Positions 1 to 12,258 of a DNA stretch of 15,363 nt are shown piece after piece. Positions within the stretch are counted from its first letter, which is position 1; each line of letters begins with the position of its first letter. The notes beneath the pieces were generated by a model. That model had not been told where the DNA came from and did no database searches. It saw only the letters and a list, made by a program, of their open reading frames with translations. This DNA is from Gammaproteobacteria bacterium (GTDB lineage: Bacteria; Pseudomonadota; Gammaproteobacteria; SURF-13). The DNA lies in assembly GCA_023487615.1 (NCBI GenBank), contig JAMDBH010000097.1, positions 1 to 15,363 of the forward strand, read 5' to 3'. The position numbers and the translations under genes were made by a program.

Positions 1-1674
1 GCCTTGGGCTTGCTGTGTCTGCAATACCATGTGTTTTTGGCAAGCATGGGGCTGGTAATGCTGGCCGACGACGCTTACCTGTTTATGGTGGCGTGGGAGA
101 CCATGGCGCTTTCATCGTATTTTCTGGTAACCACCGATCATCACCTCCCAGAAGTGCAAAAGGCAGGATTTCTTTATCTGCTCATCGCCCACATCGGCGC
201 CATTGCCATATTACTAAGTTTTGGCGTGATGCAAGGCGGTCACGGTGATTACACCTTCAACGCACTGCGTGAAGCACACCTCGATAGTTTTTGGGCCAGT
301 GTGACGTTTTTGTTGGCGCTGTTCGGCTTCGGCGCCAAGGCCGGCATGCTGCCCTTGCATGTGTGGCTGCCGGATGCCCACCCGGCGGCGCCCTCGCCGG
401 TCTCAGCCCTCATGAGCGGCGTCATGCTCAAGACCGCGATCTACGGTATTTTGCGTGTTACCTTCGATTTGCTGGGCACGCCATTATTGTGGTGGGGCGC
501 GCTGGTACTGGCACTCGGATTAGTCTCGGCGTTGTTCGGCGTGATGTTCGCGGCGGTGCAAACCGATATGAAACGCCTGCTGGCCTACTCTTCCATTGAA
601 AACATCGGCGTTATTCTGGTCGGTGTCGGCTTGACGATCATTTTCTATAGTGACGGCAAAGGTTTGCTCGCCGCACTGGCGCTCACCGCCACTCTCTACC
701 ACAGTATCAATCATGCCTTCTTTAAGGGACTGCTGTTCCTCGGCGCGGGAGCGGTACTGCACGCCACCGGCGAGCGTAATCTGGGACGCCTGGGTGGGCT
801 CATCCACCGTATGCCTTGGGTGGCGGCGCTGACTCTGGTGGGGGCACTGGCCATCGCCGGTCTGCCACCGCTTAACGGCTTTGTGTCAGAGTGGCTGTTG
901 CTGCAGGCCTTTCTGCTCTCGTCCGGTCTGCCGCAGCCCTATCTCAATATGCTGGTCCCGGTGGCGGCAGCGGCACTGGTATTGGCGATGGCCCTGTCCG
1001 CTTATGTCATGGTCAAATTTTACGGGGTGATCTTCCTCGGCCGGCCGCGTGCCGAAAGCATCAAGCAGGCACATGATGCCGGCTGGTGGGAACGGCTCGG
1101 GCTCGGCTGGCTTGCACTGGGCTGCATTGCGCTCGGGTTAATGCCGGTAGCGGTCATCTTACAACTGGACTCCGTCACGCATGCATTGATCGGCCAAGAC
1201 CTGGGCAGTACCGCGGCCAAATCCGGCTGGCTGTTCCTCACCCCGGTGGCAGCGCAGCGTGCCAGTTACAGCCCGGTGTTTTTCCTAACCGTCATACTGG
1301 TGGTGGTACTGATTAGCTTTTTAGCAGTACGCCTTTTCTACACCGGCAGGCTGAAACGCGGGCCGGCCTGGGATTGCGGCTATCCGGGACAGACTCCGCG
1401 CATGCAGGATACCGCAGAGGGCTTTGGCCAACCGATTCGACATATCTTTGGCCCGATTTTTCGGATGCAGGTGGAACTGCCGGGTGTCGACGATCTCAAA
1501 CCCAAATATCGTGTCATCATTCAAGACCGATTTTGGCACCTCATCTATCTACCCATTGCGCGCATCGTGGAATTTTCCTCCCGTCAGATTGGCAAGCTGC
1601 AGCAAGGGCGCATCCATGTCTATCTGCTGTATAGCTTTCTGACTTTGATTGCGCTGTTGGTGCTAATACGATGA
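1..1674 (+). CDS. hyfB: Hydrogenase-4/formate hydrogenlyase subunit B-like, antiporter-like membrane protein (5' partial)
   Basis: This is the C-terminal 557 or so residues of an HyfB/HycC-type membrane subunit, homologous to NuoL/Mrp antiporters. The frame is open from base 1, so the start lies upstream; E. coli HyfB is about 670 residues, so roughly 115 are missing. Counting from the TTG at 4, visible family features are WETMALSS with the conserved glutamate (E32), the block AKAGMLPLHVWLPDAHPAAP (K112), SGVMLKTAIYG (K143) and LLAYSSIENIG. These charged residues in transmembrane helices form the ion-conducting path in this family. Many hydrophobic helices follow, then the soluble-looking HyfB tail (RGPAWDCGYPGQTPRMQDTA) and a last helix. 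The stop overlaps the hyfC start as ATGA, indicating translational coupling. It should pump ions when driven by the HyfG/HyfI module. I am sure of the family; the role in this complex is inferred. Confidence 0.93.
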   Translation, partial: ALGLLCLQYHVFLASMGLVMLADDAYLFMVAWETMALSSYFLVTTDHHLPEVQKAGFLYLLIAHIGAIAILLSFGVMQGGHGDYTFNALREAHLDSFWASVTFLLALFGFGAKAGMLPLHVWLPDAHPAAPSPVSALMSGVMLKTAIYGILRVTFDLLGTPLLWWGALVLALGLVSALFGVMFAAVQTDMKRLLAYSSIENIGVILVGVGLTIIFYSDGKGLLAALALTATLYHSINHAFFKGLLFLGAGAVLHATGERNLGRLGGLIHRMPWVAALTLVGALAIAGLPPLNGFVSEWLLLQAFLLSSGLPQPYLNMLVPVAAAALVLAMALSAYVMVKFYGVIFLGRPRAESIKQAHDAGWWERLGLGWLALGCIALGLMPVAVILQLDSVTHALIGQDLGSTAAKSGWLFLTPVAAQRASYSPVFFLTVILVVVLISFLAVRLFYTGRLKRGPAWDCGYPGQTPRMQDTAEGFGQPIRHIFGPIFRMQVELPGVDDLKPKYRVIIQDRFWHLIYLPIARIVEFSSRQIGKLQQGRIHVYLLYSFLTLIALLVLIR

Positions 1675-2621
1675 GCTTGATCGAAGGTATCAGCTATCAA
1701 TTGCTGCAGTCCTTGCTGATGGTGTTGCTTGCGCCTCTGATGCTGGGCTGGGTCAATCAATGCCGCGCCCGGCTGCAAAACAAGTCCGGCGCGGGCCTGC
1801 TGCAACCCTACCGGGTATTACGCAAATTGTTTCACAAAGACGTGGTGCTGGCGCATAACGCCTCCGTATTATTTCGCGCCACGCCCTACATTCGCTTCGG
1901 TTGCATGTGGCTGGCCGCTGGCATTGTGCCCGTGCTGGCCACCGACCTGCCGTTTTCACCCGCCGCCGATGTCATCGCGCTGGTGGGGATATTTTCTCTC
2001 TCGCGTATGTTTCTGGCGCTTGCCGCAATGGACATCGGCACCGCCTTCGGGGGCTTAGGCGCGCGCCGCGAGATGATGGTTTCGTTTCTCGCTGAACCTG
2101 CCTTGCTGATGGTGTTTTTCACCGCCTCGCTCATCAGCCATTCGACCTCGCTTACCACCATCGTGGAAACTCTGGCGCATGCTAAGTTTGTGATCTATCC
2201 CAGCCTGGCGTTCGCCGCTGCGGCGTTTCTCATGGTACTGCTTGCCGAAAACGCCCGCGTTCCGGTGGACAACCCGGCTACGCATCTTGAGCTGACCATG
2301 ATGCACGAGGCGATGATTCTGGAATATTCAGGGCGGCACCTTGCGCTCATCGAATGGGCAAGCGCCATCAAGTTGCTCATCTATATCACCATTGGCATTG
2401 CACTGTTTTTGCCGTTTGGCATCGCCGAGGCAGGTCAATGGTCCGCCTTACCGTTGGCGTTCGGCGCGTTGCTGGTAAAGCTCCTGCTCGCGGGCTCAGG
2501 GCTCGCCCTGCTGGAAACCCTGTCCGCCAAGATGCGTATCTTCCTTGTGCCGGAGTTTCTCGGCACCGCCTTTTTGCTGGCGGTGTTAGGGCTGCTGATG
2601 CACTTCCTGTTGGAATCCTGA
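1671..2621 (+). CDS. hyfC: Hydrogenase-4 subunit C-like / NuoH-type membrane anchor
   Basis: A 316-residue polytopic membrane protein of the HyfC/HycD/NuoH family, close to the E. coli HyfC length. In complex I and group 4 hydrogenases this subunit joins the peripheral arm to the membrane arm and, in complex I, forms much of the quinone site. Typical signatures are the first cytoplasmic loop KSGAGLLQPYRVLRKLFHKD (about residues 38-57), the segment AFGGLGARREMMVSFLAEPA (125-144) and the acidic loop AENARVPVDNPATHLELTMM (192-211) followed by HEAMILEYSGR. The ATG start overlaps the hyfB stop (ATGA) and has no strong Shine-Dalgarno sequence, so it is probably translated by coupling. Whether it binds a quinone here cannot be read from the sequence. 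Confidence 0.94.
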   Translation: MSLIEGISYQLLQSLLMVLLAPLMLGWVNQCRARLQNKSGAGLLQPYRVLRKLFHKDVVLAHNASVLFRATPYIRFGCMWLAAGIVPVLATDLPFSPAADVIALVGIFSLSRMFLALAAMDIGTAFGGLGARREMMVSFLAEPALLMVFFTASLISHSTSLTTIVETLAHAKFVIYPSLAFAAAAFLMVLLAENARVPVDNPATHLELTMMHEAMILEYSGRHLALIEWASAIKLLIYITIGIALFLPFGIAEAGQWSALPLAFGALLVKLLLAGSGLALLETLSAKMRIFLVPEFLGTAFLLAVLGLLMHFLLES

Positions 2622-2622
2622 G

Positions 2623-3285
2623 ATGCCCGTCACCCTTTCCGGACAATTGATTAATCTGCTGGCCGCGCTGCTGTTGCTGATCGCCTTCGCCATGATCACG
2701 CAGCGTCGCATACTTTCGCTGGTCAACCTGTTCACCTTACAGGGTTTGGTCCTTGGCATGAGCACCCTTGTCGTGGCGTATTCCACCGGTCAGCATCATC
2801 TCTATTTTTCCGCCGTGTTGACCCTTGCGATCAAGGTTGTGCTGCTGCCGTGGATATTGCACCGCTTAATGCGTAAATTGAATGTGCAGTGGGATGTGGA
2901 GACGCTCATCAACATCCCAAGCACCCTACTCGTGGGTATTGCGCTGGTCATCTTCGCCTTTAATCTGGCGTCCCCCATCTCGCACCTGGCTGGTACTATC
3001 TTGCGCAGTACCCTGGGTATCGCCTTGGCGAGCGTGCTGTTGTCATTTTTGATGATGATTACGCGGCGCAAGGCGATCCCGCAGGTGATTGGTTTTCTCG
3101 CCATGGAAAACGGTTTATTTTTCGCCGCCACCAGCGCCACCTATGGCATGCCGATGGTAGTTGAATTAGGCATTGCCTTGGACGTCCTGGTAGGCATGTT
3201 TATCTTTGGCATCTTCTTCTTCCAGATCCGCGAACGGTTCGACAGCCTGGACCTGCGGCATATGGAAAAGTTAAAGGACGACTGA
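2623..3285 (+). CDS. hyfE: Hydrogenase-4 subunit E-like / NuoK-related membrane protein
   Basis: A 220-residue, very hydrophobic protein that matches HyfE in length (E. coli about 216) and position. HyfE is related to NuoK and MrpC and supplies small transmembrane helices to the membrane arm. Visible family features are VVLLPWILHRLMRKLNV in the middle, followed by ITRRKAIPQVIGFLAMENGL (about 145-164), whose buried glutamate is typical of NuoK-like subunits, and a C-terminal helix before the charged tail IRERFDSLDLRHMEKLKDD. The ATG lies one base after the hyfC stop, and its own stop abuts the next start, so it is a tight operon member. In E. coli the gene hyfD lies between C and E. No such gene is present here. 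Confidence 0.9.
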   Translation: MPVTLSGQLINLLAALLLLIAFAMITQRRILSLVNLFTLQGLVLGMSTLVVAYSTGQHHLYFSAVLTLAIKVVLLPWILHRLMRKLNVQWDVETLINIPSTLLVGIALVIFAFNLASPISHLAGTILRSTLGIALASVLLSFLMMITRRKAIPQVIGFLAMENGLFFAATSATYGMPMVVELGIALDVLVGMFIFGIFFFQIRERFDSLDLRHMEKLKDD

Positions 3286-4740
3286 GTGGAAGCGCTTTGG
3301 GTCCTCGCCATCCCGCTGTTGGGTAGTATATTACTGGCCTTGTGGGGGCATAAGACATGGGCCGCGGAGTTAGGGGCCATGATGAGCCTCGGCACGTTTG
3401 TCGCGGCGATTATACTCACGGTGCGCATTATTGACCATGGCCCGCTGCTCGTCGCCGAAGAGTTATTTTTTATCGACTCCTTTAACGTATTCCTGGTCGC
3501 GCTTACGGCCTTTGTCGCCTTTACCACTTCACTGTTCAGCCGTCCTTACATGCGCATTGAACAACATCACGGCAAACTCTCATTAAACATGCTGCGCCTG
3601 TATCACAGCATGTTTCAATTATTTACCTTCACCATGCTGCTTGCGCTCACCACTAATAGCATGGGCATCCTGTGGGTGGCGATGGAGGCGGCCACGCTCA
3701 CCACGGTGCTATTGGTGAGCCTGTACCGCACGCCGGCGAGTCTGGAAGCGGCGTGGAAATATTTCATCCTGTGCGGCGTCGGTCTTGCTCAGGCGTTATT
3801 CGGCACCATCTTGCTTTACTTCGCCGCGGAAAAGGTGCTTGGGTCAGGCGGCACGGCGCTGTTATGGACGCACCTCAATTCCGTCAAGAGCCAGCTTGAG
3901 CCCACGGTACTGTCACTCGCGTTCGTCTTCATGCTGGTCGGTTACGGCACCAAGGTCGGACTGGTGCCTTTACACAACTGGCTGCCTGATGCGCACGCCG
4001 AAGGCCCGACGCCGGTCTCCGCAGTGCTTTCCGGATTGCTGCTCAATGTCGCTTTGTACGCCGTGGTGCGCAGCAAGATACTGGTGGATGGCGCATTGGA
4101 CAACAGCCACTTGGCCGGCAACCTGATGATGGGATTCGGTCTAATCAGTGTGGTGGCGGCCGCATTTTCCCTTTCGCGGCAAAAGGACATCAAGCGCCTG
4201 TTCGCCTATTCCTCAATTGAGCATATGGGGCTTATGACCTTTGCCTTCGGCATGGGCGGGCCGGTCGCTACATTCGCGGCATTGCTGCATATGACCGTGC
4301 ATTCGCTGACCAAATCAGCCATCTTTTTTGCCGCTGGCCACGCCGCACAGAAAACCGGCACGCAGCTTATGGACAAGATACGCGGGCTGATTCAGCACAG
4401 CCCGACCGTAGGATGGGGTTTGATGCTGGGGGCGCTTGCCATACTCGGCATGCCGCCGTTCGGCGTGTTTACCAGTGAGTTCATGATTCTCACCACAACC
4501 ATGCACAGCCAACCCTGGGCCACGCCGTTTTTGCTCATTGCACTGGGCGTGGCGTTTGCCGCGATCTTCGGCAAGGTGCAGCCCATGGTGTTTGGCGAAA
4601 CCACTGCGCAACGCTTGCCGCATCCGCCGGCGCTGATACCCGTTTTTATGCACCTCAGCCTGGTACTGATGCTGGGTTTATACATACCTCCGTATCTTGC
4701 AGACTGGTACAGAGAAGCCGCGCGTTTGATCAGCCCTTAA
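3286..4740 (+). CDS. hyfF: Hydrogenase-4 subunit F-like, second antiporter-like membrane protein
   Basis: A 484-residue polytopic protein of the HyfF/NuoL/NuoN/Mrp antiporter family, somewhat shorter than E. coli HyfF (about 526). The GTG start directly follows the hyfE stop. Conserved features are WVAMEAATL with the key glutamate (E134), GYGTKVGLVPLHNWLPDAHA (219-238, K223), the PTPVSAVLSGLLLNVALY segment, FAYSSIEHMG (about 306-315) and HSLTKSAIFFAAGH with K343. The charged residues of the proton path are thus kept. Together with HyfB it gives at least two antiporter-like channels. The role as a pump is inferred from the family. It has no in-frame damage, and its codon use looks like that of its neighbours. 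Confidence 0.93.
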   Translation: MEALWVLAIPLLGSILLALWGHKTWAAELGAMMSLGTFVAAIILTVRIIDHGPLLVAEELFFIDSFNVFLVALTAFVAFTTSLFSRPYMRIEQHHGKLSLNMLRLYHSMFQLFTFTMLLALTTNSMGILWVAMEAATLTTVLLVSLYRTPASLEAAWKYFILCGVGLAQALFGTILLYFAAEKVLGSGGTALLWTHLNSVKSQLEPTVLSLAFVFMLVGYGTKVGLVPLHNWLPDAHAEGPTPVSAVLSGLLLNVALYAVVRSKILVDGALDNSHLAGNLMMGFGLISVVAAAFSLSRQKDIKRLFAYSSIEHMGLMTFAFGMGGPVATFAALLHMTVHSLTKSAIFFAAGHAAQKTGTQLMDKIRGLIQHSPTVGWGLMLGALAILGMPPFGVFTSEFMILTTTMHSQPWATPFLLIALGVAFAAIFGKVQPMVFGETTAQRLPHPPALIPVFMHLSLVLMLGLYIPPYLADWYREAARLISP

Positions 4741-4756
4741 AGTCACACGACGGATA

Positions 4757-6301
4757 ATGCAACTCGAAGAGTTTCCAATTGAACTAAACAAGATTTCCGG
4801 CGCTGTACCCGCCTGGCGGGGCACGGTGGATACAGAGCAGTGGCGTTCGGCCTGTGAAGGAGTACGTACCGCGGGAGGGCGTCTGATTGCGCTGTGGGGC
4901 AGTGATGAGCGCAAGCGCGGCGAGGGTTACGCCGTGTATGCGGCGCTCAGCGTGAACTCGGGGATGGTCTGCTTGCGTCTTGATGTGGAAGAGCGGTATC
5001 CGAAATTTCCCGACATCAGTGATCTGTTCCCGTCGGCCAACCGCATGCAGCGCGCCGTGCACGATATGCTGGGGTTGCATCCCGGCGGCGCAGCGGATCA
5101 CCGCAAGTGGCTGCGTCACGGCGCCTGGCCCGGCAACCAATATCCGTTGCGCGGGGATTTTGCGGCAGCCCACTTTGCGGCGGAAGATGACCACTATCCC
5201 TTCATCACGGTGACGGGAGAGGGTGTGCACGAAATCCCGGTCGGGCCGGTCCACGCCGGCGTCATCGAGCCGGGGCATTTTCGTTTTCAAATCGTCGGAG
5301 AAAAGATTCTGCGGCTGGAGGAGCGCCTGGGATACACGCACAAGGGCATCGAAAAACTTTTTGCAAATATGACGCAGCGCGAGGCCGCCAAACTGGCCGG
5401 CCGCATCAGCGGCGACAGCACCGTCGCCTACGCCTGGGCCTACGCGATGGCGCTGGAGGGTGCGGCGGGACTCACACCGCCGACGCGCGCGCTGTGGCTA
5501 CGCGCGCTTCTGCTGGAGCGCGAGCGGATGATGAATCATCTGGGCGATCTCGGCGCCCTCGGCAACGACGCGGGCTTCGCCTTTGGACTCGCGCAATTCT
5601 CGCGTCTCAAGGAAGACGTGCTGCGCACCAATGGCGCGTTATTCGGCCACCGTTACCTGATGGATGTTGTCATACCGGGCGGCGTCGCGCATGATCTGGG
5701 CGCCGGCGCTAAACAACGTCTGACAAACGAAATCCAGCAGTTGCAGGATGAAGTGACCGTACTCAAAAATATCTACGATGATCACGCGGGCATGCAGGAC
5801 CGCTTCCTGACCACCGGACGCGTTGCGCCCGATCTGGCGGCGCGACTGGGCCTCACCGGTTTTGCGGGGCGCGCAAGCGGGCAATCCTGGGATTTGCGTG
5901 CGCAATTTCCTTGCGCGCCCTATGACCAACTCGAGGTACGCATGGCAACGCACCGCAACGGTGACGTCGCGGCGCGCGTCACGGTGCGCTTCGAGGAAAT
6001 CTTCGAATCGCTGCGCCTGTGCCGCATGCTGCTGGAACAATTACCGGAAGGCAATATCGTTATAGAGATGCCCGCGGTTTCGGACGGCGCGTTCGGCGTG
6101 GGCTGGGTGGAAGGCTGGCGCGGTGAAATTTTCATTGCGCTCTCTGCCGGTAGAGATAACGGCATACGTCGCCTGCATGCGCACGATCCTTCCTGGCAAA
6201 ACTGGCCGGCGCTGGAATATGCAGTGATCGGCAATATCGTTCCCGATTTTCCGCTCATCAATAAATCCTTTAACCTGAGCTATAGCGGACACGATTTATA
6301 G
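4757..6301 (+). CDS. hyfG: Hydrogenase-4 large subunit-like protein lacking Ni-binding cysteines (NuoC-NuoD fusion type)
   Basis: A 514-residue soluble subunit. Residues 1 to about 140 resemble the NuoC-like domain and about 150 to 514 the NuoD/large-hydrogenase domain, as in HycE/HyfG. Family features include HEIPVGPVHAGVIEPGHFRF (158-177), RLEERLGYTHKGIEKL, LLLERERMMNHLGDLGALGNDAGF and NWPALEYAVIGNIVPDFPLI (482-501). In active enzymes the Ni site is RxCGxC near the front and DPCxxC near the end. Here the first reads R216-I-S-G-D-S221, and the second region, SFNLSYSG (504-511), has Ser and Gly where cysteines belong. The protein ends three residues later with no extension of the kind cleaved by a maturation protease. 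It is therefore unlikely to be a hydrogenase. It follows hyfF by 16 bases. The substrate is unknown; contact with a quinone or another partner is a guess from complex I homology. Confidence 0.92.
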   Translation: MQLEEFPIELNKISGAVPAWRGTVDTEQWRSACEGVRTAGGRLIALWGSDERKRGEGYAVYAALSVNSGMVCLRLDVEERYPKFPDISDLFPSANRMQRAVHDMLGLHPGGAADHRKWLRHGAWPGNQYPLRGDFAAAHFAAEDDHYPFITVTGEGVHEIPVGPVHAGVIEPGHFRFQIVGEKILRLEERLGYTHKGIEKLFANMTQREAAKLAGRISGDSTVAYAWAYAMALEGAAGLTPPTRALWLRALLLERERMMNHLGDLGALGNDAGFAFGLAQFSRLKEDVLRTNGALFGHRYLMDVVIPGGVAHDLGAGAKQRLTNEIQQLQDEVTVLKNIYDDHAGMQDRFLTTGRVAPDLAARLGLTGFAGRASGQSWDLRAQFPCAPYDQLEVRMATHRNGDVAARVTVRFEEIFESLRLCRMLLEQLPEGNIVIEMPAVSDGAFGVGWVEGWRGEIFIALSAGRDNGIRRLHAHDPSWQNWPALEYAVIGNIVPDFPLINKSFNLSYSGHDL

Positions 6302-6303
6302 CT

Positions 6304-6819
6304 ATGTATAAGACCATCAGACAGATTTTATGCACCGGCATCAAGACCGAGGCGCCGCCTTCTACGGATGATGCGCTGCGCCGGCAAGTGCAGCATCTGC
6401 ACACGGGTATCCTCGCCTGTTTCGGCCGGGCGCTTGCGATACGTCACGTGGATGCCGGGTCATGCAACGGCTGCGAATTGGAGATTCACGCCCTGAGCAA
6501 TCCTTACTACAACATCGAGGGTTTGGGTATACACTTCGTCGCAAGCCCGCGTCATGCCGATCTGCTGCTCGTCACCGGGCCTGTTTCCCGGCACATGCAG
6601 ACCGCGCTGCAACGCACCTATGATGCCGTGCCTGACCCCAAGTGGGTGGTTGCGGTGGGTGATTGCGGTTGCACCGGCGGTATCTTTGGTGTGAGTTATG
6701 CGAGTTGTGGTGCGGTGAATGCCGTGATTCCGGTGGATGTCGCCGTACCGGGTTGCCCCCCCACTCCGGTAGCGCTGTTGCAGGGTATTTTGACCGCAGT
6801 CGGCAAGGAACACCCTTAG
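6304..6819 (+). CDS. hyfI: Hydrogenase-4 small subunit-like / NuoB-type Fe-S protein
   Basis: A 171-residue protein of the HyfI/HycG/NuoB family that carries the Fe-S cluster next to the large subunit (N2 in complex I, the proximal cluster in hydrogenases). The four ligands are present: C54 and C57 in DAGSCNGCELEI, C121 in GDCGCTGG, and C151 in VPGCPPTPVALLQGIL. The N-terminal 45 or so residues precede the domain. It lacks the longer C-terminal part of E. coli HyfI (about 252 residues) and ends soon after the last motif. The start is two bases after the hyfG stop, with no clear Shine-Dalgarno sequence. The stop TAG coincides with the left edge of a small mobile-element-like repeat. The site would still read TAG without the insertion, so the end is probably original. 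It probably passes electrons to or from HyfG; no ferredoxin-like partner (HyfH/HycF) follows. Confidence 0.92.
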   Translation: MYKTIRQILCTGIKTEAPPSTDDALRRQVQHLHTGILACFGRALAIRHVDAGSCNGCELEIHALSNPYYNIEGLGIHFVASPRHADLLLVTGPVSRHMQTALQRTYDAVPDPKWVVAVGDCGCTGGIFGVSYASCGAVNAVIPVDVAVPGCPPTPVALLQGILTAVGKEHP

Positions 6820-6974
6820 CAGATTGTTGAAAAAGCCCGTCCATGGGCTTTTTCAACTCGCTAAGCAAAAAGTGCGATTTTTGCTTTGCTCCATTTTTCA
6901 AGCACCTACACCGTGCTTGAAAAATGGCGGCGCATCCGTGTGCCGCACGCAGGCTGTTTTTCAACAGCCTGCTA
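6817..6974. mobile_element. MITE-like element with terminal inverted repeats and TA flanks
   Basis: The ends are inverted copies. The left end reads TAGCAGATTGTTGAAAAAGC, and the right end, read in reverse complement, begins TAGCAGGCTGTTGAAAAACA. Both are bounded by TA, as expected for a TA target duplication of the IS630/Tc1-mariner type. The interior has no gene and is a chain of hairpins: a 13-bp stem at 6826-6838/6845-6857, a 9-bp stem at 6863-6871/6878-6886, a perfect 15-bp stem at 6891-6905/6913-6927, and a weak one at 6928-6945. It lies exactly at the hyfI stop codon. The class assignment is inferred from structure; other genome copies would confirm it. Confidence 0.7.
6826..6857. terminator. 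Probable bidirectional terminator at the end of the hyf operon
   Basis: A perfect 13-bp stem with a 6-base loop (GTCCAT). Its core is AAAAAGCCC, loop, GGGCTTTTT, so a GC stem is followed by five T on either strand. This is the form of an intrinsic terminator. It starts seven bases after the hyfI stop and lies inside the MITE-like element, which therefore probably supplies the operon's terminator. The GC part is only 4 bp, so its strength is uncertain. Confidence 0.6.
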
Positions 6975-7109
6975 GCTCGACTTACACATCCTGTCTTGTG
7001 CCAAGCCGTGTCACACAACTACTTGCATTCGGTTTGAATATGTCGCTTAATAAATGGGGTAGATTGATACCAACTTGGCAATTGACCTTGTTAAATAAAG
7101 GAGTTGAAC
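6975..7109. other. Intergenic stretch before the small membrane gene, with a weak promoter candidate
   Basis: About 135 bases that become AT-rich toward the gene. TTGCAT at 7023-7028 is followed after 17 bases by CTTAAT at 7046-7051, each matching four of six sigma-70 consensus bases. If used, this would give a leader of about 50 bases. No open frame here looks real; a longer frame crossing this stretch overlaps the hairpin element and lacks protein-like composition. Confidence 0.25.
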
Positions 7110-7265
7110 ATGGATATCTTGTGGACTATTGCTGTCATTCTGTTGATCCTATGGGTATTAGGTCTGGTTACTTCCTACACCATCGGAGGATTTATCCATC
7201 TCCTTCTAGTAATCGCTATCATTGTAGTGCTGATTCGAATCATCCAGGGCCGCAGACCTTTATAG
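7110..7265 (+). CDS. Small two-helix membrane protein, DUF5670 / lmo0937-like
   Basis: A 51-residue protein beginning MDILWTIAVILLILWVLG, with a second hydrophobic segment IGGFIHLLLVIAIIVVLIRI and the short tail IQGRRPL. This is the recognisable pattern of the lmo0937/DUF5670 family: two membrane helices linked by LVTSYTIGGFIH, a basic end and a total of about 50 residues. The start is supported by AAAGGAG six bases upstream (7097-7103). The family has no settled biochemical role; members often turn up near genes for envelope or general stress. It is followed by a perfect palindrome and another small membrane-protein gene. The function is unknown, but that this is a real gene is well supported by the ribosome site and the family pattern. 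Confidence 0.85.
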   Translation: MDILWTIAVILLILWVLGLVTSYTIGGFIHLLLVIAIIVVLIRIIQGRRPL

Positions 7266-7271
7266 TTTTAT

Positions 7272-7297
7272 GGAATCTCTGATTAATCAGAGATTCC
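7272..7297. repeat. Perfect 26-nt palindrome between two small membrane genes
   Basis: The arm GGAATCTCTGATT is followed directly by its exact reverse complement. It starts seven bases after the stop of the first small gene and ends 41 bases before the next start. No run of T follows on either strand, so it is not a standard intrinsic terminator. It could be an mRNA hairpin that protects or attenuates the transcript, or a dimeric operator. Confidence 0.6.
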
Positions 7298-7338
7298 TCG
7301 GATCCACCTGATTTCAAAATTAATCAAGGAGACTGTGT

Positions 7339-7560
7339 ATGAAATCGGCGACCATGATCGGTATCATTCTTATCGTACTGGGGGTTGTTGCACTCGCCTA
7401 CCAGGGAATTACCTACACGACCCAAGAGAAGGTCATTGACATTGGCCCCATCGAGGCCACTGCAGAAACCGAGAAGACGATCCCACTCCCGCCTGTTTTA
7501 GGCGTATTGGCGCTGGTAGGAGGAATCGTACTGGTTGTGGTAGGAGCAAAAAAATCGTAG
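7339..7560 (+). CDS. Small membrane protein, DUF3185-like
   Basis: A 73-residue protein with an N-terminal helix (MIGIILIVLGVVALAYQGIT), a middle polar segment (YTTQEKVIDIGPIEATAETE) and a second helix (VLGVLALVGGIVLVVVG) ending in AKKS. The motif TTQEKVIDIGPIEA between two helices is what I recognise as the DUF3185 family, found as short proteins of about 70 residues in proteobacteria. A strong AAGGAG at 7325-7330 precedes the ATG by eight bases and fixes the start. It may be cotranscribed with the DUF5670-like gene. No enzymatic residues are seen. A role in envelope stress is only a guess from the usual company of such genes. Confidence 0.87.
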   Translation: MKSATMIGIILIVLGVVALAYQGITYTTQEKVIDIGPIEATAETEKTIPLPPVLGVLALVGGIVLVVVGAKKS

Positions 7561-7771
7561 TAGTTTAAAAGTGAAATCGCCGCGTATCCAACGCCTGAAT
7601 CTGTGGTATAGTTATTTTACTGTTTGCATGACGGCCGGATAACTACTCCGGCTGTCTTCTGTAGTCCCGAAATGGTGGCTCATCCATGGGCCGCACGCAG
7701 CTTGTTCTTCAACCGTCGGCAGTACAATCGCCCGTTTATCTCGTGTCCATCCCATTTCCAAGGAGCGTACG
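7561..7771. other. Intergenic stretch with a GC-rich hairpin
   Basis: A nine-base-pair stem lies at 7630-7638/7648-7656 (GACGGCCGG pairing with CCGGCTGTC, one G-U pair, nine-base loop), followed by TTCTG. It may end the transcript of the two small membrane genes, but the T tract is poor. TATAGT at 7607-7612 resembles a -10 box, though no good -35 box is found at the right distance. No further gene is seen. Confidence 0.3.
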
Positions 7772-8815
7772 ATGCATTACAACATCCATTTTCGCAGTCT
7801 CTCCAGCAGCATTCGGCATATTGTGGCGCATACCGTTATCACGCTGCTGGCCATTGGCATGGCTTTTTACTTGCCGGTGGCGGCCAAATACATTCTTTAC
7901 TATTGGTGGCCGAAAGTAGAATACGATTCCCACTTACTGGTCATCACCGAGATCGGCTTTGCCGCCGTGCTGGTCATGTTGTTCAACATCTCCTTAATTG
8001 CCTTGGATGGCCGGCGCAGCTTGCGGATGAACAAGATCGCCTCGCTGGTGTATGCGCGCGAAAAAACCGGCTGGTTTTCACGTAGGGGCGAGCGTGCGTT
8101 GCGCAAAAAATTTCTTTGCGCGCGGGATGTCTCTATTTTCTCCATCACCGGCTATGATACGTTCAGCTCGGAAAATTGCATGCTTCAGCAACCCTTGGAA
8201 CACAGCTACGAAATCAGGGTAATGCTGATGAATCCGAATGGCGAGGGCGCCATCAAGCGCGTCAGCTCCCTAAGCGACCCGGAATCGCTGCTGGAAACAT
8301 ACCGCCACGAAACCGAAACCAGTATCGCCTACTTGAAGAAGCTGAGCGCCGCAGGCAAGAAGATCACCCTTAAGCTCTATAACGACCCGCCGTTCTGGAA
8401 GCTGGTGGTGACGGGGGAGTATGTGTGGGTGCAGTATTGCCATGAAGGCTATGAAGTCAAGAGCCAGCCGGAATACGTATTCGCCCTGCAGCGGGACTAC
8501 CCAACCCGCGGCTTCTTTGCCCCCTTCTACATGTACTTTCTCGACCAGTGGAATGATCCCCGTCACCCCGAATACAACCTGGAGACGGATGAGTTGGTTT
8601 ACCGTAACGCGGAAGGCAATGAAATCAAGCGGGTTCCTTTCGGCCGGGCAGAGGGGGAGCAAGTTGAGCGGCGCGTTAAGGACTCGGTCCGCAAGTCCGC
8701 AGGCTGGGCTGAGAAACGAAACCCGGCCTTCGCCGCAGCAAAATATAACCGCAGAGATCGCAGAGGAGGTGCGTTATTTCATGCCCCCCAAACACCTCCG
8801 CGTCCTCAGCGGTAA
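7772..8815 (+). CDS. Two-helix membrane protein with a possible degenerate PLD-like cytoplasmic domain
   Basis: A 347-residue protein of unknown function. Two membrane segments lie at about 18-46 and 54-78, with the rest presumably in the cytoplasm. The soluble part has EIRVMLMNPNGEGAIKR (147-163), then a helical LLETYRHETETSIAYLKKLS, then KITLKLYNDPPFWKLVVTGE and GFFAPFYMYFLDQWND. This order (hydrophobic strand with an asparagine/aspartate-proline, arginine-rich helix, second strand, 'sensor' strand, FxxxW end) resembles inactive phospholipase-D-like sensor domains. No HxKxxxxD catalytic motif is present. The start is fixed by AAGGAG at 7760-7765. Residues 326-347 are encoded by an interspersed palindromic repeat, so the original C-terminus was probably different. 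The stop is 11 bases from the convergent ubiB end. The domain assignment is tentative. Confidence 0.8.
   Translation: MHYNIHFRSLSSSIRHIVAHTVITLLAIGMAFYLPVAAKYILYYWWPKVEYDSHLLVITEIGFAAVLVMLFNISLIALDGRRSLRMNKIASLVYAREKTGWFSRRGERALRKKFLCARDVSIFSITGYDTFSSENCMLQQPLEHSYEIRVMLMNPNGEGAIKRVSSLSDPESLLETYRHETETSIAYLKKLSAAGKKITLKLYNDPPFWKLVVTGEYVWVQYCHEGYEVKSQPEYVFALQRDYPTRGFFAPFYMYFLDQWNDPRHPEYNLETDELVYRNAEGNEIKRVPFGRAEGEQVERRVKDSVRKSAGWAEKRNPAFAAAKYNRRDRRGGALFHAPQTPPRPQR
8748..8813. repeat. Interspersed palindromic repeat, copy 1
   Basis: The left arm ACCGCAGAGATCGCAGAGG (8748-8766) and right arm CCTCCGCGTCCTCAGCGGT (8795-8813) are imperfect inverted copies with four mismatches. The same arm motif recurs at 14284-14302 and 14328-14346. 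The copy lies inside the last codons of the membrane-protein gene, ends on the first base of its TAA stop, and can form a hairpin between two convergent genes. It may serve as a shared terminator. Confidence 0.75.
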
Positions 8816-8826
8816 GTTTTAATCAG

Positions 8827-10485
8827 TTAATCCCGTCCGCCCGACCATGAACGGATCAGGAGCAAGGCGCCGATGCCACCGAGCAGCCAGGTGAGCACGG
8901 GCGCATTGCCGATCATCATCGGGGCATAACCGTCCAAACCTTTAATCACTGCGGCGCTGATAACAAAGGCTGCGCCTATCGTGGCGGTATAGCCGCGTGC
9001 CATGGCCTGCCGCATTTCACGGCGTATCTCATTAAGCTCCTTCGATTTCCATTCGATTTGCAGCTTGCCGTCGCGCGCCTGCTCCAGGACTTCGTGCACC
9101 AGCAGAGGGATATCGGGCATCTTTTCCGCCCACTGCGGGGCGTTCTCGCGCACAGCGCGCAATAAGGCGCGTGTTCCAACCTGTTCGCTCATCCAGCGTT
9201 CCAAGATCGGCTTCGAGGTAACCCATAGATCCAGCTCGGGATACAGTTGCCGGCCCAAGCCTTCGATGTTGAGCAAGGTTTTTTGCAGCAGCACCAGTTG
9301 CGGCTGCACTTCCATATTAAAGCGGCGCGCCGTTTGAAACAGACGCAGCAACAACTGCCCGAAGGAGATGTCCTTCAGCGGGCGTTCAAAAATCGGTTCG
9401 CACACGGTACGCATGGCGGATTCAAACTCATCTACTCGCGTAGTAGACGGCACCCAACCGGCATCTACGTGCAACTGCGCGACGCGGCGGTAGTCCCGGT
9501 TGAAAAAGGCTAGAAAGTTCTCCGCGAGATAGCGTTGATCCGCCGGGCTGAGCGTACCCATGATACCGAAGTCCACCGCGACGTATTGCCCCTTGGGCGA
9601 GACGAAGATGTTGCCGGGGTGCATGTCAGCATGAAAGAAGCTGTGGCGAAAAACTTGAGTAAAAAATATTTCCACGCCGTGTTCGGACAGTTCCTTGAGA
9701 TTGATGCCCGCCGCCCGTAGACCTGCGACATCACTGATAGGGATGCCGTAAATCCGCTCCATGACCATGACGTCGCGACGCGCCAATGGCCATTCGATTT
9801 CCGGTACGTAGAGCAGCGTAGAATCCAGCCAGTTGCGGCGTAACTGACTGGCGTTGCCCGCCTCGCGCAGCAGATCGAGCTCATCGAGTATGGTCTTTTC
9901 GTACTCCGCGACTATTGCGCGCGGCCGCAGACGTTTCCCCTGCGACCAGTAACGCTCGGCCATCTCGGCGAGGGCGTAGAGCAGACTCACATCGCGGCGG
10001 ATCACCTTTTCAATCTGCGGACGCACAACCTTGACGACGACCTCGCGGCCGCCGAACAGGCGCGCGAGATGGACTTGTGCAATAGAGGCGGAGGCAAACG
10101 GAGTCTCCTGAAATTCCTGAAACACCTCGCTCAAGGGTTTCCCGTAGGCCTGCTCGATAATGGCGCGCGCCTGATCGCCGGGGAAGGATGGCACTTGATC
10201 CTGAAGCAGGGCGAGTTCCCTGGCGATGTCTTCCGGCAATAAATCGGGGCGGGTGGAAAGCATTTGTCCGAATTTGACGAACACCGGACCGAGGTCTTCG
10301 AGGGCGCGGCGGATGCGCACCGCGCGCGGCGGCAGATCGCCGCGCACCCAGTACCACGGGGCAAAATAAAGCAAAAAACGCAGCGGGCGGAATAGATGGG
10401 TGGCGAGGATGATTTCGTCCAGCCCATGCCGCAGCAAGACACGATTGATATAAAACAGGCGGAAAAACTGGCCGGGGCGTATCAC
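8827..10485 (-). CDS. ubiB: UbiB atypical kinase-like ATPase for ubiquinone biosynthesis
   Basis: A 552-residue ABC1/ADCK/UbiB family protein (E. coli about 546) needed for ubiquinone synthesis, probably using ATP to help extract or present membrane-bound intermediates. Visible motifs: KFGQ (71-74), the alanine-rich loop ASASIAQVH (131-139) that replaces the usual kinase glycine loop, K152 in [23 protein letters not shown] (201-215), the catalytic-loop-like [10 protein letters not shown] (285-294) and metal-binding DFG (305-307). Two C-terminal hydrophobic helices anchor it in the membrane, as expected. The GTG start overlaps the ubiJ stop (GTGA), so translation is coupled. It is the last gene of the reverse-strand ubi cluster and converges on the membrane-protein gene at 7772-8815. 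I see no missing key residue. Confidence 0.96.
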
Positions 10486-11129
10486 GTTTTTTTATCCGTC
10501 GCAGCTTCCAGGCGGCGCCGCAGGCGCGCCACCCGTTGCTCCAGGCGTTCGACATCATCGCGCAAGGTATCCACCGCGCCGATAAAGTTCCGCACATCGT
10601 CCGGGCGCGGCAGGTTGTACGCTTCCTCCTGTTGATACTCGGCGAAATCCTGGCCGAGCCTGGCGGCGGCTTGCCGGCCCCAGCCCTGCACGGCGCGCGC
10701 CGCGTTACCGAGTTTGTGGGCCAGCAGGTCGCCCACGAACCCTGCGAGATGTTCTTCCCAGTCTATCTCGACGGCGTCGAGGATCTGCTTGAAGCGCTGT
10801 CCCAACTCGACGTCGCCGCTGATCCGCACCTCCCCCGAGACCAGCGCCGCGCGGGCCTCGCGGCTGTCGCTCTGTAGGCCGCCCATGCGCAATAGCGCCC
10901 ACGGCGTACCACGCAATATCGCATCGGGAACGCCCGCATAATCCGCAAGGATGCGGACTCCATCCGGCTCGGGCGCAAAGTATATTGTCCGCTCCAGGCC
11001 TTCCAATTCGACCGCGATGACCTTGCCGGAGAGAGCGGCGAAACGCGACGGGGTATCTGGGTCGAGATTGAGATAGCGGTTCAGTGTGCCTTCCAAGGCG
11101 CGTATGTGCACTGGCTGGGGGATGTTCAT
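10482..11129 (-). CDS. ubiJ: UbiJ, SCP2-domain accessory factor of ubiquinone biosynthesis
   Basis: A 215-residue protein in the position of ubiJ (formerly yigP) between ubiE and ubiB. The N-terminal part (about 15-115) fits an SCP2 lipid-binding domain: [40 protein letters not shown], then [20 protein letters not shown]. The middle has [20 protein letters not shown] and the end is a charged coiled-coil-like helix (about 178-208). UbiJ binds ubiquinone intermediates in the lipid cavity and holds the soluble Ubi complex together with UbiK. The ATG at 11129 is 29 bases after the ubiE stop, and its stop overlaps the ubiB GTG. The assignment is strong from gene order and domain pattern; the sequence itself varies a lot in this family. 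Confidence 0.93.
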
Positions 11130-11158
11130 GCGTGTTGGGTAGGTTCGGGCAGTGGGAC

Positions 11159-11908
11159 TCAGAACTTATAACCCTTGTGCAAGGCCACGATGCCACCGCT
11201 TAGATTATAGTAATCACAGCGCTCAAAACCCGCGCCCTGCATCATTCTTTTGAGCGTTTCCTGATCCGGATGCATGCGGATGGACTCGGCGAGATAACGG
11301 TAGCTATCCGCGTCGCGTGCGATCAGTTTGCCCATCAGCGGGAGGACCTTGAACGAGTATAGATCATACAGGGGTTGCAGGCCGGGGATGCTGGGTTTGG
11401 AAAACTCCAGTATCAACGCACGGCCGCCCGGCTTCAACACCCTACAGATCGCGGCCAGGGCGCGTTCCTTATGAGTCACATTGCGCAGCCCGAAGGCCAT
11501 GGTGACACAGTCGAAATAGTCATCGGGAAAAGGCAGGCATTCGGCATCGGCTTGGAGATATTCAATATTAGCCACCACTCCGCGATTCACCAACCGCTCA
11601 CGCCCTTCCCGCAACATGGCGGCATTGATGTCGGCGAGCATCACTTGACCTTGCATCCCTACGCGATCCGCGAGTTTAGCGGCCAGGTCACCGGTACCGC
11701 CGGCGAGATCCAGCACGCGCTCCCCTGCCCTGACACCACTCACGTCAATGGTAAAGCGTTTCCACAAGCGATGGATGCCGAACGACATGACATCGTTCAT
11801 CAGGTCGTAGCTGGCCGCCACCGATCCGAATACACCGGCGACCCGCTCCGCCTTTTCCTCGATCGGGACTTGTTGATAGCCGAAGTGGGTGGTGTCTCGT
11901 TCGCTCAT
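11159..11908 (-). CDS. ubiE: Ubiquinone/menaquinone biosynthesis C-methyltransferase UbiE
   Basis: A 249-residue SAM-dependent methyltransferase that adds the C-methyl group to 2-polyprenyl-6-methoxy-1,4-benzoquinol, and to demethylmenaquinol where that exists. I take the ATG at 11908 because it gives [15 protein letters not shown], the usual N-terminus, and overlaps the upstream DUF971 stop as ATGA; a longer frame starting at 11962 would read through that gene. Motifs: [20 protein letters not shown] (27-46), SAM-binding [11 protein letters not shown] (66-76), [20 protein letters not shown] and [17 protein letters not shown]. The length matches E. coli (251). It sits between DUF971 and ubiJ in what appears to be one operon. 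Confidence 0.96.
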
Positions 11909-12258
11909 GCTTCTTTGCGCGTGTGTCCTGCCCGCTGCAGCCGTTCCAGATAGGCCTGCCATTTTTCCTGCTGATGTGCACCGAGCTCATAGAGCAGATC
12001 CCACGAATAAAGCCCCGTGTTGTGTCCGTCATCGAAATGCAGGCGCACGGCATAGCTGCCCACCGGGTCTATGGCACTGATGTTGACCTGTTCCTTGCCC
12101 ACCTGCAATACCTCCTGACCGGGGCCGTGACCGCGCACCTCCGCCGATGGCGAATACACGCGCAGGTACTCACAGGGCAGATCGAAACGGGCGCCGTCGT
12201 CGAAGCTGATCTCCAGCATGCGCGATTTTTGATGCAGTTTAATTTCAGTGGGTCGCAT
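11905..12258 (-). CDS. DUF971 protein (gamma-butyrobetaine hydroxylase-like N-terminal domain)
   Basis: A 117-residue protein of the DUF971 family, which corresponds to the zinc-binding-like N-terminal domain of gamma-butyrobetaine hydroxylases but occurs alone in many proteobacteria. Typical pattern: [20 protein letters not shown], then [21 protein letters not shown], then [20 protein letters not shown] followed by WDLLYELG. Its location between hslU and ubiE is common in gammaproteobacteria. The function of stand-alone members is not settled, though links to Fe-S assembly or protein quality control have been suggested. The ATG at 12258 is preceded by a palindromic repeat only five bases away and no Shine-Dalgarno sequence is seen, so initiation may rely on a leader hairpin or on coupling. 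The stop overlaps ubiE. Confidence 0.9.

What the first reader, a model, noticed from the sequence alone, without database searches (positions are those of the whole stretch)
5399..6301. Hydrogenase-4 large subunit with all four NiFe ligands lost
In the sequence, the RxCGxC motif reads R-I-S-G-D-S (residues 216-221) and the C-terminal DPCxxC region reads SFNLSYSG (504-511), then the protein stops. Three ligand positions hold Ser and one holds Gly, while the rest of the protein is well kept and in frame. Loss of NiFe ligands with retention of the whole complex is known for the Ehr group of energy-converting hydrogenase-related complexes. The chemistry of such complexes is not known, so this operon probably encodes an ion-pumping oxidoreductase of unknown substrate.
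Basis: partly seen in the sequence, partly recalled or inferred. Interest (0 to 1): 0.75.

Follow-up and report, generated by a model that had tools for sequence, protein, structure and literature searches.

The report
Hydrogenase-like membrane complex without nickel site
This six-gene operon encodes a cousin of respiratory complex I and hydrogenase-4 whose hydrogen-handling metal site has been lost and replaced by a conserved new pocket, so it looks like a working member of a widespread, uncharacterised group of membrane machines rather than a hydrogenase or a broken gene.

Summary
In the HyfG/HycE-like large subunit (4757-6301) the four NiFe-ligand cysteines read S218, S221, S508 and G511. 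This is not decay: of 115 distinct relatives 111 have no Cys there and 4 have one, and all share two aspartates (D220, D271) and end where HycE is processed; dN/dS is 0.06-0.18. The conserved unit is hyfBCEFGI. Proton-channel residues and HyfI's four cluster Cys are kept, but HyfA, HyfD, HyfH and any ferredoxin domain are missing. 18 of 35 sampled genomes with the family lack the NiFe maturase HypD. The family is one clade, with moderate support sister to NiFe-intact group-4 enzymes. It works like the published Ehr complexes; the same gene cluster is reported as non-hydrogenase in Acidithiobacillus (PMC7735108). Best mechanism: electrons pass between a soluble carrier on HyfI and quinone at the former NiFe pocket, coupled to proton movement. 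New lead: co-occurrence with nitrogenase (nifH 12/35 versus 14/241), not with RuBisCO, ccoN, HypD or RnfC. Substrate and direction are unproven.

The parts
1..1674 (+). hyfB-like antiporter subunit (5' end cut by the window)
   Evidence: NCBIfam NF005086 hydrogenase 4 subunit B, 822.7 bits; charged residues conserved in the family, e.g. K113 90/90, K242 90/91, duplicate loci not removed
1671..2621 (+). hyfC-like (NuoH-like) membrane subunit
   Evidence: PF00146 2e-31; E142, D200, E207, E213, E218 in 94/94 rows, duplicate loci not removed
2623..3285 (+). hyfE-like membrane subunit
   Evidence: NCBIfam NF008556, 96.2 bits, below its cut-off of 136; present in the conserved gene order
3286..4740 (+). 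hyfF-like antiporter subunit
   Evidence: NCBIfam NF005045, 876.9 bits; E134 129/130, K223, K303 and E398 134/134, duplicate loci not removed
4757..6301 (+). hyfG-like large subunit (NuoC domain + NuoD/HycE domain) without NiFe ligands
5402..5419 (+). R-I-S-G-D-S at the place of RxCGxC
   Evidence: D220 115/115, S218 109/115
5567..5569 (+). D271, aligned with NuoCD D325; F in HycE/HyfG, G in the NiFe-intact sister
   Evidence: 115/115; alignment
6266..6301 (+). SFNLSYSGHDL-stop at the place of DPCxxC; no C-terminal extension
   Evidence: tail length 0 after residue 514 in 115/115; E. coli HycE and HyfG continue 32 residues past the same point
6304..6819 (+). hyfI-like small subunit, ligands of one [4Fe-4S] cluster, no ferredoxin domain
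   Evidence: PF01058 1.4e-31; Cys 54, 57, 121, 151 in 108/108 distinct rows; no ferredoxin motif

Best explanation
The operon encodes an Ehr-type complex: a six-subunit, complex-I-like membrane machine that has abandoned H2 chemistry. Shown by sequence: no NiFe ligands, intact proximal [4Fe-4S] ligands, intact proton-channel residues, purifying selection, presence in genomes without the NiFe maturase HypD. Inferred: a soluble low-potential carrier (ferredoxin- or flavodoxin-like) docks directly on HyfI where other members carry a ferredoxin domain; electrons pass one at a time through the single cluster to or from a quinone (or a quinone-like ligand) in the former NiFe pocket, near Ser218, Asp220, Asp271 and Ser508; the reaction is coupled through HyfC/E to proton movement in HyfF and HyfB. 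Direction: reversible. Proton-motive-force-driven quinol-to-ferredoxin transfer under microaerobic, low-potential demand is my preferred direction, mainly because the family co-occurs with nitrogenase.
For: Ligand loss fixed across 115 distinct relatives with invariant D220 and D271. HyfI cluster Cys 108/108. HyfF E134/K223/K303/E398 and HyfB lysines kept. dN/dS 0.064-0.183 for five operon genes against the closest held relative with the operon. HypD missing in 18 of 35 family genomes, which are listed as 91-100% complete. Gene order hyfBCEFGI with no further gene shared by most of the 80 loci. Fold like HycE/NuoD. nifH 12/35 versus 14/241, OR 8.5, p 7.6e-6; the excess is there with HypD (10/17 versus 13/95), without it (2/18 versus 1/146) and in both ccoN strata; 11 of 26 families versus 8 of about 124. 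ubiE, an SCP2-domain gene (ubiJ-like) and ubiB lie in the window, so the host probably makes ubiquinone.
Against: The complex-I quinone pair His/Tyr is not there: the aligned residues are I170 and G219, so a canonical quinone site is not conserved. No electron-input subunit is in the operon. 23 of 35 family genomes show no nifH over the cut-off, and none was found in G001, G002 or G004, kin of the window. The nifH link was found after trying five markers and is not corrected for phylogeny beyond a family-level count with an estimated total. G005, the closest held relative with the operon, has HypD. No biochemical data were seen.
Confidence: 0.5

Rival explanations
1. An inorganic-carbon (bicarbonate/CO2) pump: the antiporter arm drives CO2 hydration or works with the SulP transporter encoded just upstream in some relatives, like cyanobacterial NDH-1MS or DAB complexes.
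For: In 13 of 73 loci with enough upstream sequence (72 distinct records) a SulP gene ends 21-278 bp before hyfB on the same strand. Many of the 80 closest loci are Gallionella/Sulfuricella-type MAGs, which I recall as autotrophs.
Against: RuBisCO (PF00016, RuBisCO-like proteins included) is not enriched: 20/35 versus 128/241. Plasmids of Rhizobium and Azospirillum carry the family, genera I recall as mostly not autotrophic. No carbonic anhydrase or DabA gene among the annotated representatives of ten frequent neighbour clusters (four further clusters were not annotated). The SulP neighbour of L028 matches a plant sulfate transporter best in the PDB and BicA (6ki1) much less well.
Confidence: 0.1
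2. A different oxidoreductase in which the substrate is reduced near the proximal [4Fe-4S] cluster, for example polysulfide as in the archaeal Mbs complex, or formate through a separate formate dehydrogenase.
For: Several of the closest hosts carry sulfur-bacterium names (Sulfuricella, Sulfuriferula). Geobacter Ehr subunits were more abundant on formate than in the hydrogen-containing conditions (PMC7894505, passage). 6u8y_L (which I recall as Mbs) is a sequence match (4.4e-19).
Against: No formate dehydrogenase or sulfur-enzyme gene among the annotated frequent neighbours. The Mbs mechanism is recalled, and the Mbs pocket was not compared here.
Confidence: 0.15
3. A redox-dead assembly: the FeS cluster is structural and the complex acts as a proton/cation channel or antiporter in stress or pH homeostasis.
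For: No electron input subunit. Genes for universal stress proteins, YoaK (DUF1275) and spermidine synthase-like proteins lie beside it in various combinations in Variovorax, Paraburkholderia, Rhizobium and Burkholderia.
Against: Four cluster Cys invariant in 108/108 and pocket aspartates invariant in 115/115, which suggests chemistry in the pocket.
Confidence: 0.15
4. A decaying or mis-assembled hydrogenase-4 gene.
For: hyfG of the closest held relative with the operon, G005, is read as two overlapping frames.
Against: The window ORF is intact; motifs are conserved in 115 relatives; dN/dS is low. The G005 genome is 76% complete in 170 contigs, so its frame break may be an assembly error.
Confidence: 0.02

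Closest known systems
Ehr (energy-converting hydrogenase-related) complexes of comammox Nitrospira, Geobacter and ammonia-oxidising archaea
   Same: Group-4-like large subunit said to lack the CxxC NiFe motifs, function unknown (Nitrospira PMC10284858, archaea PMC10432482; passages); Ech-related complex with antiporter-like, HyfE-like, large and small subunits in Geobacter (PMC7894505, passages). A Nitrospira operon is written hyfBCEFGI (PMC5596200, passages).
   Different: No named Ehr sequence was aligned here. Whether those have the D220/D271 signature or a ferredoxin domain on the small subunit was not tested.
hyfBCEFGI cluster of Acidithiobacillus ferrooxidans
   Same: Same six gene names; catalytic subunit classed as non-hydrogenase with HydDB (PMC7735108, passages); earlier proposed as a group 4 hydrogenase exploiting the PMF (PMC2621215, passages).
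   Different: Sequence not compared here.
E. coli hydrogenase-4 / formate hydrogenlyase (Hyf, Hyc)
   Same: Subunits B, C, E, F, G and I; HycE is the best structural and PDB sequence match.
   Different: E. coli has four ligand Cys, a C-terminal extension and HyfA, D, H and J; all are absent here.
NiFe-intact sister clade (L053 upstream operon; P0121-P0240)
   Same: Nearest clade in the trees (79.8/92 and 63.9/88); shares HAGIIEPGHFRF and NKSFEL-type sequence; operons of both kinds stand in tandem in L053.
   Different: In the L053 copy four Cys intact (RICGVC, ELCYSC), G at position 271, remnant ferredoxin motif on HyfI.
Respiratory complex I (NuoCD)
   Same: Asp at position 271 (NuoCD D325), C-terminus at the same point, no NiFe Cys.
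   Different: No His/Tyr pair at the aligned positions, no NuoI/E/F/G found beside the operon.

Membership tests
Ehr complexes | Group-4-like large subunit that lacks the NiFe-binding CxxC motifs | tested here: met
   S218, S221, S508, G511; 111 of 115 distinct relatives have none of the four Cys
Ehr complexes | Antiporter-type membrane subunits retained with their charged residues | tested here: met
Ehr complexes | Same gene set as the published clusters, hyfBCEFGI | tested here: met
   gene order in the window and loci against the order named in passages of PMC5596200 and PMC7735108; the Geobacter gene set was not compared gene by gene
Ehr complexes | Grouping in a tree with named Ehr sequences (Geobacter GSU0739-45, Nitrospira) | not tested
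   no named Ehr sequence was fetched
[NiFe] hydrogenase group 4 | Four Cys ligands of the NiFe site | tested here: not met
[NiFe] hydrogenase group 4 | NiFe maturation genes in host genomes | tested here: not met
   HypD absent in 18 of 35 family genomes; found in 4 of 14 control genomes, E. coli included. But 17 of 35 have it, and so does G005, the closest held relative with the operon
[NiFe] hydrogenase group 4 | C-terminal extension removed by a maturation protease | tested here: not met
   tail 0 in 115/115; but the NiFe-intact L053 copy also lacks it, so this is weak evidence
Respiratory complex I | Quinone-pocket His/Tyr/Asp (recalled as T. thermophilus Nqo4 H38/Y87/D139, taken as NuoCD H224/Y273/D325) | tested here: not met
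   I170, G219, D271: one of three
Respiratory complex I | NuoI and NADH module | tested here: not met
   loci L021-L100 searched with E. coli NuoE, NuoF, NuoG, NuoI, HyfA and HyfH: no NuoE/F/G; one NuoI hit of 21.1 bits, one HyfH hit of 18.1 bits and one HyfA-like hit of 48.8 bits (L073:11662-12393, minus strand, outside the operon); many loci have short flanks
DIC pump (DAB / NDH-1MS) | Carbonic-anhydrase-like partner and link to autotrophy | tested here: inconclusive
   no such gene among the annotated frequent neighbours, but not every neighbour was annotated; RuBisCO not enriched
Mbs/Mbx sulfur reductase | Partial loss of NiFe Cys with substrate at the proximal cluster (recalled) | not tested
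   only a sequence match to 6u8y_L was seen

The most novel reading that the evidence does not exclude
A single-cluster, cofactor-poor relative of complex I in which an acid-bearing pocket replaced the NiFe site and which uses proton motive force to push electrons from quinol directly onto ferredoxin or flavodoxin, feeding nitrogenase and other low-potential reactions in microaerobic bacteria: an Rnf/Fix-like role by a hydrogenase-derived machine.
Probability: 0.18. Interest if true: 0.8.

Novelty: new member of a known kind. Interest (0 to 1): 0.45.

Why it matters
8000 related large subunits (the cap) score at E <= 1e-20, and the 120 listed, 64-100% identical, are called Ni,Fe-hydrogenase III subunit, hydrogenase or NADH-quinone oxidoreductase subunit where a source names them; claims of H2 metabolism drawn from such names can be wrong. 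The NiFe site, lost on the way to complex I, was probably lost again in other clades, and this one gives a smaller machine with one FeS cluster in which to study redox coupling. The nitrogenase association makes its unknown function testable.

Tried and rejected
Decay or artefact: rejected by conservation and dN/dS. HyfF-HyfG fusion: several loci showed about 1000-aa open frames over hyfG, but no ORF tested matched both HyfG (over 120 bits) and HyfF (over 100 bits), so they are frame extensions, not fusions. Link to carbon fixation: suggested by SulP and host names, then not supported by RuBisCO counts. Low-oxygen locus of Burkholderia: the paper I wanted is not held and I saw nothing usable in the search listing. 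The Ehr phylogeny paper that I recall (looked up by DOI) is not held either. orf7 (7772-8815) as a partner: no family found and one relative among 100 loci, 19.9 kb into L040 and about 8 kb from the operon there. Tree supports: my first reading was one node off because supports do not move when a tree is rerooted; the values given here come from one search, which reads the bipartitions, and the sister relation is weaker than first read. Pocket geometry: the model's coordinates were not among the files of the Python box, so distances between D220, D271, S218 and S508 were not measured; residues 145-195 and 508-514 of the model are under pLDDT 50. Markers tried for co-occurrence: five (nifH, RuBisCO, ccoN, HypD, RnfC), one enriched; the RuBisCO, ccoN and RnfC counts use the E-value limit of the call (148, 148, 161 genomes; 148, 146 and 160 pass the family cut-off), the nifH count uses the cut-off (26 of 31). 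Link between this family and nitrogenase in print: one search, listing only, none of the ten listed titles or abstract starts is about it.

Full report
What is there. The window holds a six-gene operon on the + strand, hyfB (cut at its 5' end), hyfC, hyfE, hyfF, hyfG and hyfI, nearly back to back from 1 to 6819. Behind it are two small membrane-protein ORFs and an unassigned ORF and, on the other strand, ubiB, an SCP2-domain gene (ubiJ-like), ubiE, a GBBH-like_N gene, an AAA/protease pair (hslU/hslV-like) and a lysA-like decarboxylase gene, so this looks like ordinary chromosome. The window's own genome is not held.

Not decay. Together with genomes searched by handle they give 115 distinct large subunits of the window's kind, here called type A. 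Left out of this count were the E. coli references, the NiFe-intact L053 copy, a second ligand-less kind (type B), ORFs under 400 aa (the split G005 gene), short loci superseded by longer ones, and repeats of the same residues 200-514. Of the 115, 111 have no Cys at the four positions and 4 have one; D220, D271, N502, K503, S504, N506, Y509 and D513 are invariant; all 115 end at residue 514. Position 508 is Ser in 109 and Ala in 6; three plasmid copies from Burkholderia and Paraburkholderia, not in the 115, have Asn there. E. coli HycE and HyfG run 32 residues further, while NuoCD stops at the same point. A NiFe-intact relative also stops there, so the missing tail alone proves nothing. dN/dS between the window and G005, the closest held relative with the operon, is 0.117 (large-subunit domain), 0.183 (N-terminal domain), 0.097 (hyfI), 0.072 (hyfF), 0.064 (hyfC) and 0.090 (hyfE).

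The rest of the machine. HyfI keeps its four cluster cysteines in 108 of 108 distinct rows (the L053 intact companion is among them). HyfF keeps E134, K223, K303 and E398, and HyfB and HyfC keep charged residues (duplicate loci not removed there). In loci L021-L100 the E. coli HyfA, HyfH and NuoI sequences gave one hit each (48.8, 18.1 and 21.1 bits), none inside the operon, and NuoE, NuoF and NuoG gave none; many loci have short flanks. The type B small subunits carry a ferredoxin-like domain, whole or half (7 of 7), and one unusual Variovorax operon has it fused to HyfI. The type A small subunits lack it: of 107 distinct rows with an anchor motif only one has such a motif, and that one belongs to the NiFe-intact L053 operon; one further row, L086, had no anchor and was dropped. 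So type A lacks both the NiFe site and the usual electron wire, and keeps one cluster.

Origin. Maximum-likelihood trees of the large-subunit domain were made with all columns (47 sequences) and with the ligand columns removed and named plasmid copies added (58 sequences); supports (SH-aLRT/UFBoot) were read from bipartitions. Type A is one clade (99.9/100; 94.8/96), joined by the divergent Variovorax sequence in the second tree (84.9/94). Its sister is a NiFe-intact clade (79.8/92; 63.9/88) whose listed members include Betaproteobacteria and Acidobacteria records. Type B is one clade (93.9/97; 86.1/89) outside them, and E. coli Hyf/Hyc and NuoD lie further out (98.1/99; 98.3/99). The simplest reading is two losses of the NiFe site, in A and in B, besides the one in complex I; it rests on the sister node, whose support is moderate. 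In L053 an intact and a ligand-less operon stand in tandem; in Variovorax PBL-E5 two ligand-less operons do.

The pocket. In E. coli NuoCD the residues aligned with I170, G219 and D271 are H224, Y273 and D325, which I recall as the quinone-pocket trio. Type A has only the aspartate, where HycE/HyfG have F and the intact L053 copy has G, plus its own D220 inside the former RxCGxC. By sequence the pocket is neither a NiFe site nor a standard quinone site. Positions in space were not measured.

Nickel maturation. Among 276 genomes of the class, 36 match the family at E <= 1e-60; one of them (G138) has only type B; the ligand motifs were read in the other 35, for G066 the first motif only. HypD is found in 17 of these 35 and in 95 of 241 others; 18 family genomes have none. 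G005, which is not in that sample, has HypD, so the window's host may own another hydrogenase.

Neighbours and hosts. The only gene set shared by most loci is hyfBCEFGI; the frequent flanks that were annotated are mostly housekeeping genes (metG, dnaE, lpd-like, apbC-like, dcd-like), a histidine kinase and SulP transporters; two of the ten had no Pfam match. A SulP gene ends 21-278 bp upstream of hyfB in 13 of 73 loci with enough sequence (72 distinct records); the one compared with the PDB matches a plant sulfate transporter best. Plasmid-borne copies were listed for Variovorax, Cupriavidus, Burkholderia, Paraburkholderia, Azospirillum, Rhizobium and a methanotroph; 84 records matched in all, 30 listed, and some of the 84 may be intact hydrogenases. 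In the neighbourhoods read, universal stress protein genes appear in Variovorax, Paraburkholderia and Rhizobium, YoaK (DUF1275) genes in Paraburkholderia, Burkholderia and Rhizobium, and spermidine-synthase-like genes in Variovorax, Paraburkholderia and Burkholderia; two further records had no gene table.

A functional lead. nifH (over its curated cut-off) is present in 12 of 35 type A genomes and 14 of 241 others (OR 8.5, p 7.6e-6). The excess is there with HypD (10/17 versus 13/95) and without it (2/18 versus 1/146), and in both ccoN strata (9/23 versus 12/125; 3/12 versus 2/116). By family it is 11 of 26 versus 8 of about 124, the total number of families being estimated. RuBisCO (20/35 versus 128/241), ccoN (23/35 versus 125/241), HypD (17/35 versus 95/241) and RnfC (21/35 versus 140/241) are not enriched. 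Five markers were tried. In the three genomes where nifH and hyfG lie on one contig (G115, G126, G258) they are at least 139 kb apart. 23 of 35 type A genomes lack nifH, so nitrogenase cannot be the only use.

What is published. Read as passages only: Ehr complexes of comammox Nitrospira 'lack the typical CxxC motifs', function unknown (PMC10284858); Ehr in ammonia-oxidising archaea and Nitrospira (PMC10432482); Geobacter Ehr (GSU0739-45) more abundant on formate than in hydrogen-containing conditions (PMC7894505); Ehr in lineages related to Cyanobacteria, suggested to work with formate dehydrogenase (PMC6349859); hyfBCEFGI in Nitrospira (PMC5596200); the A. ferrooxidans hyfBCEFGI cluster found non-hydrogenase (PMC7735108) after an earlier prediction as a group 4 hydrogenase (PMC2621215). 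So the kind is known. I saw no statement of the D220/D271 signature, of the missing ferredoxin domain or of the nifH association in the listings or in the passages read; these searches did not target the first two directly, and the main Ehr phylogeny that I recall is not held.

Mechanism. Shown: no NiFe ligands, one set of cluster ligands, intact pump residues, selection. Inferred: electrons exchange between a soluble carrier on HyfI and quinone in the old NiFe pocket, coupled to proton movement, direction set by conditions, with reverse flow to low-potential carriers the preferred reading (confidence 0.5 for the redox-pump model; 0.18 for the nitrogenase-feeding version).

Noticed in passing
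L138-L144, L176:7048-9378: A second ligand-less kind (type B: ER[VFIL]SG..., C-terminus such as SFGLxxAxxDR) with order hyfC-E-F-G-I-B and a ferredoxin-like domain, whole or half, on HyfI in the 7 examined; G213 carries two type B operons facing each other plus a type A operon.
   Followed up: partly
L053:1-4428 and 4795-12203: A NiFe-intact group-4-like operon (RICGVC/CYSC) stands directly upstream of a ligand-less one on the same strand.
   Followed up: partly
L174:7074-14358: Variovorax PBL-E5 plasmid: a third, divergent ligand-less operon (SIVGDS, NKSFDLSYCGNDL) whose HyfI has a fused 2[4Fe-4S] domain, upstream of a type A operon.
   Followed up: partly
L104:7301-8799: hyfG of the closest held relative (G005) is read as two overlapping frames; either an assembly error or a broken gene. 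Left as it is.
   Followed up: no
window 7104-7265 (+) and 7339-7560 (+): Two small predicted membrane proteins, DUF5670 and a DUF308-like one (below the Pfam cut-off).
   Followed up: no
window 6817-6834/6957-6974 and 6891-6905/6913-6927: Two inverted repeats just downstream of hyfI.
   Followed up: no
window 7772-8815 (+): ORF of 347 aa with no Pfam or NCBIfam match; one relative in L040:19923-21032.
   Followed up: partly
L176:12848-13216: A DUF190 (PII-like) gene, with an inorganic pyrophosphatase gene nearby, next to a type B operon on a Burkholderia plasmid.
   Followed up: no
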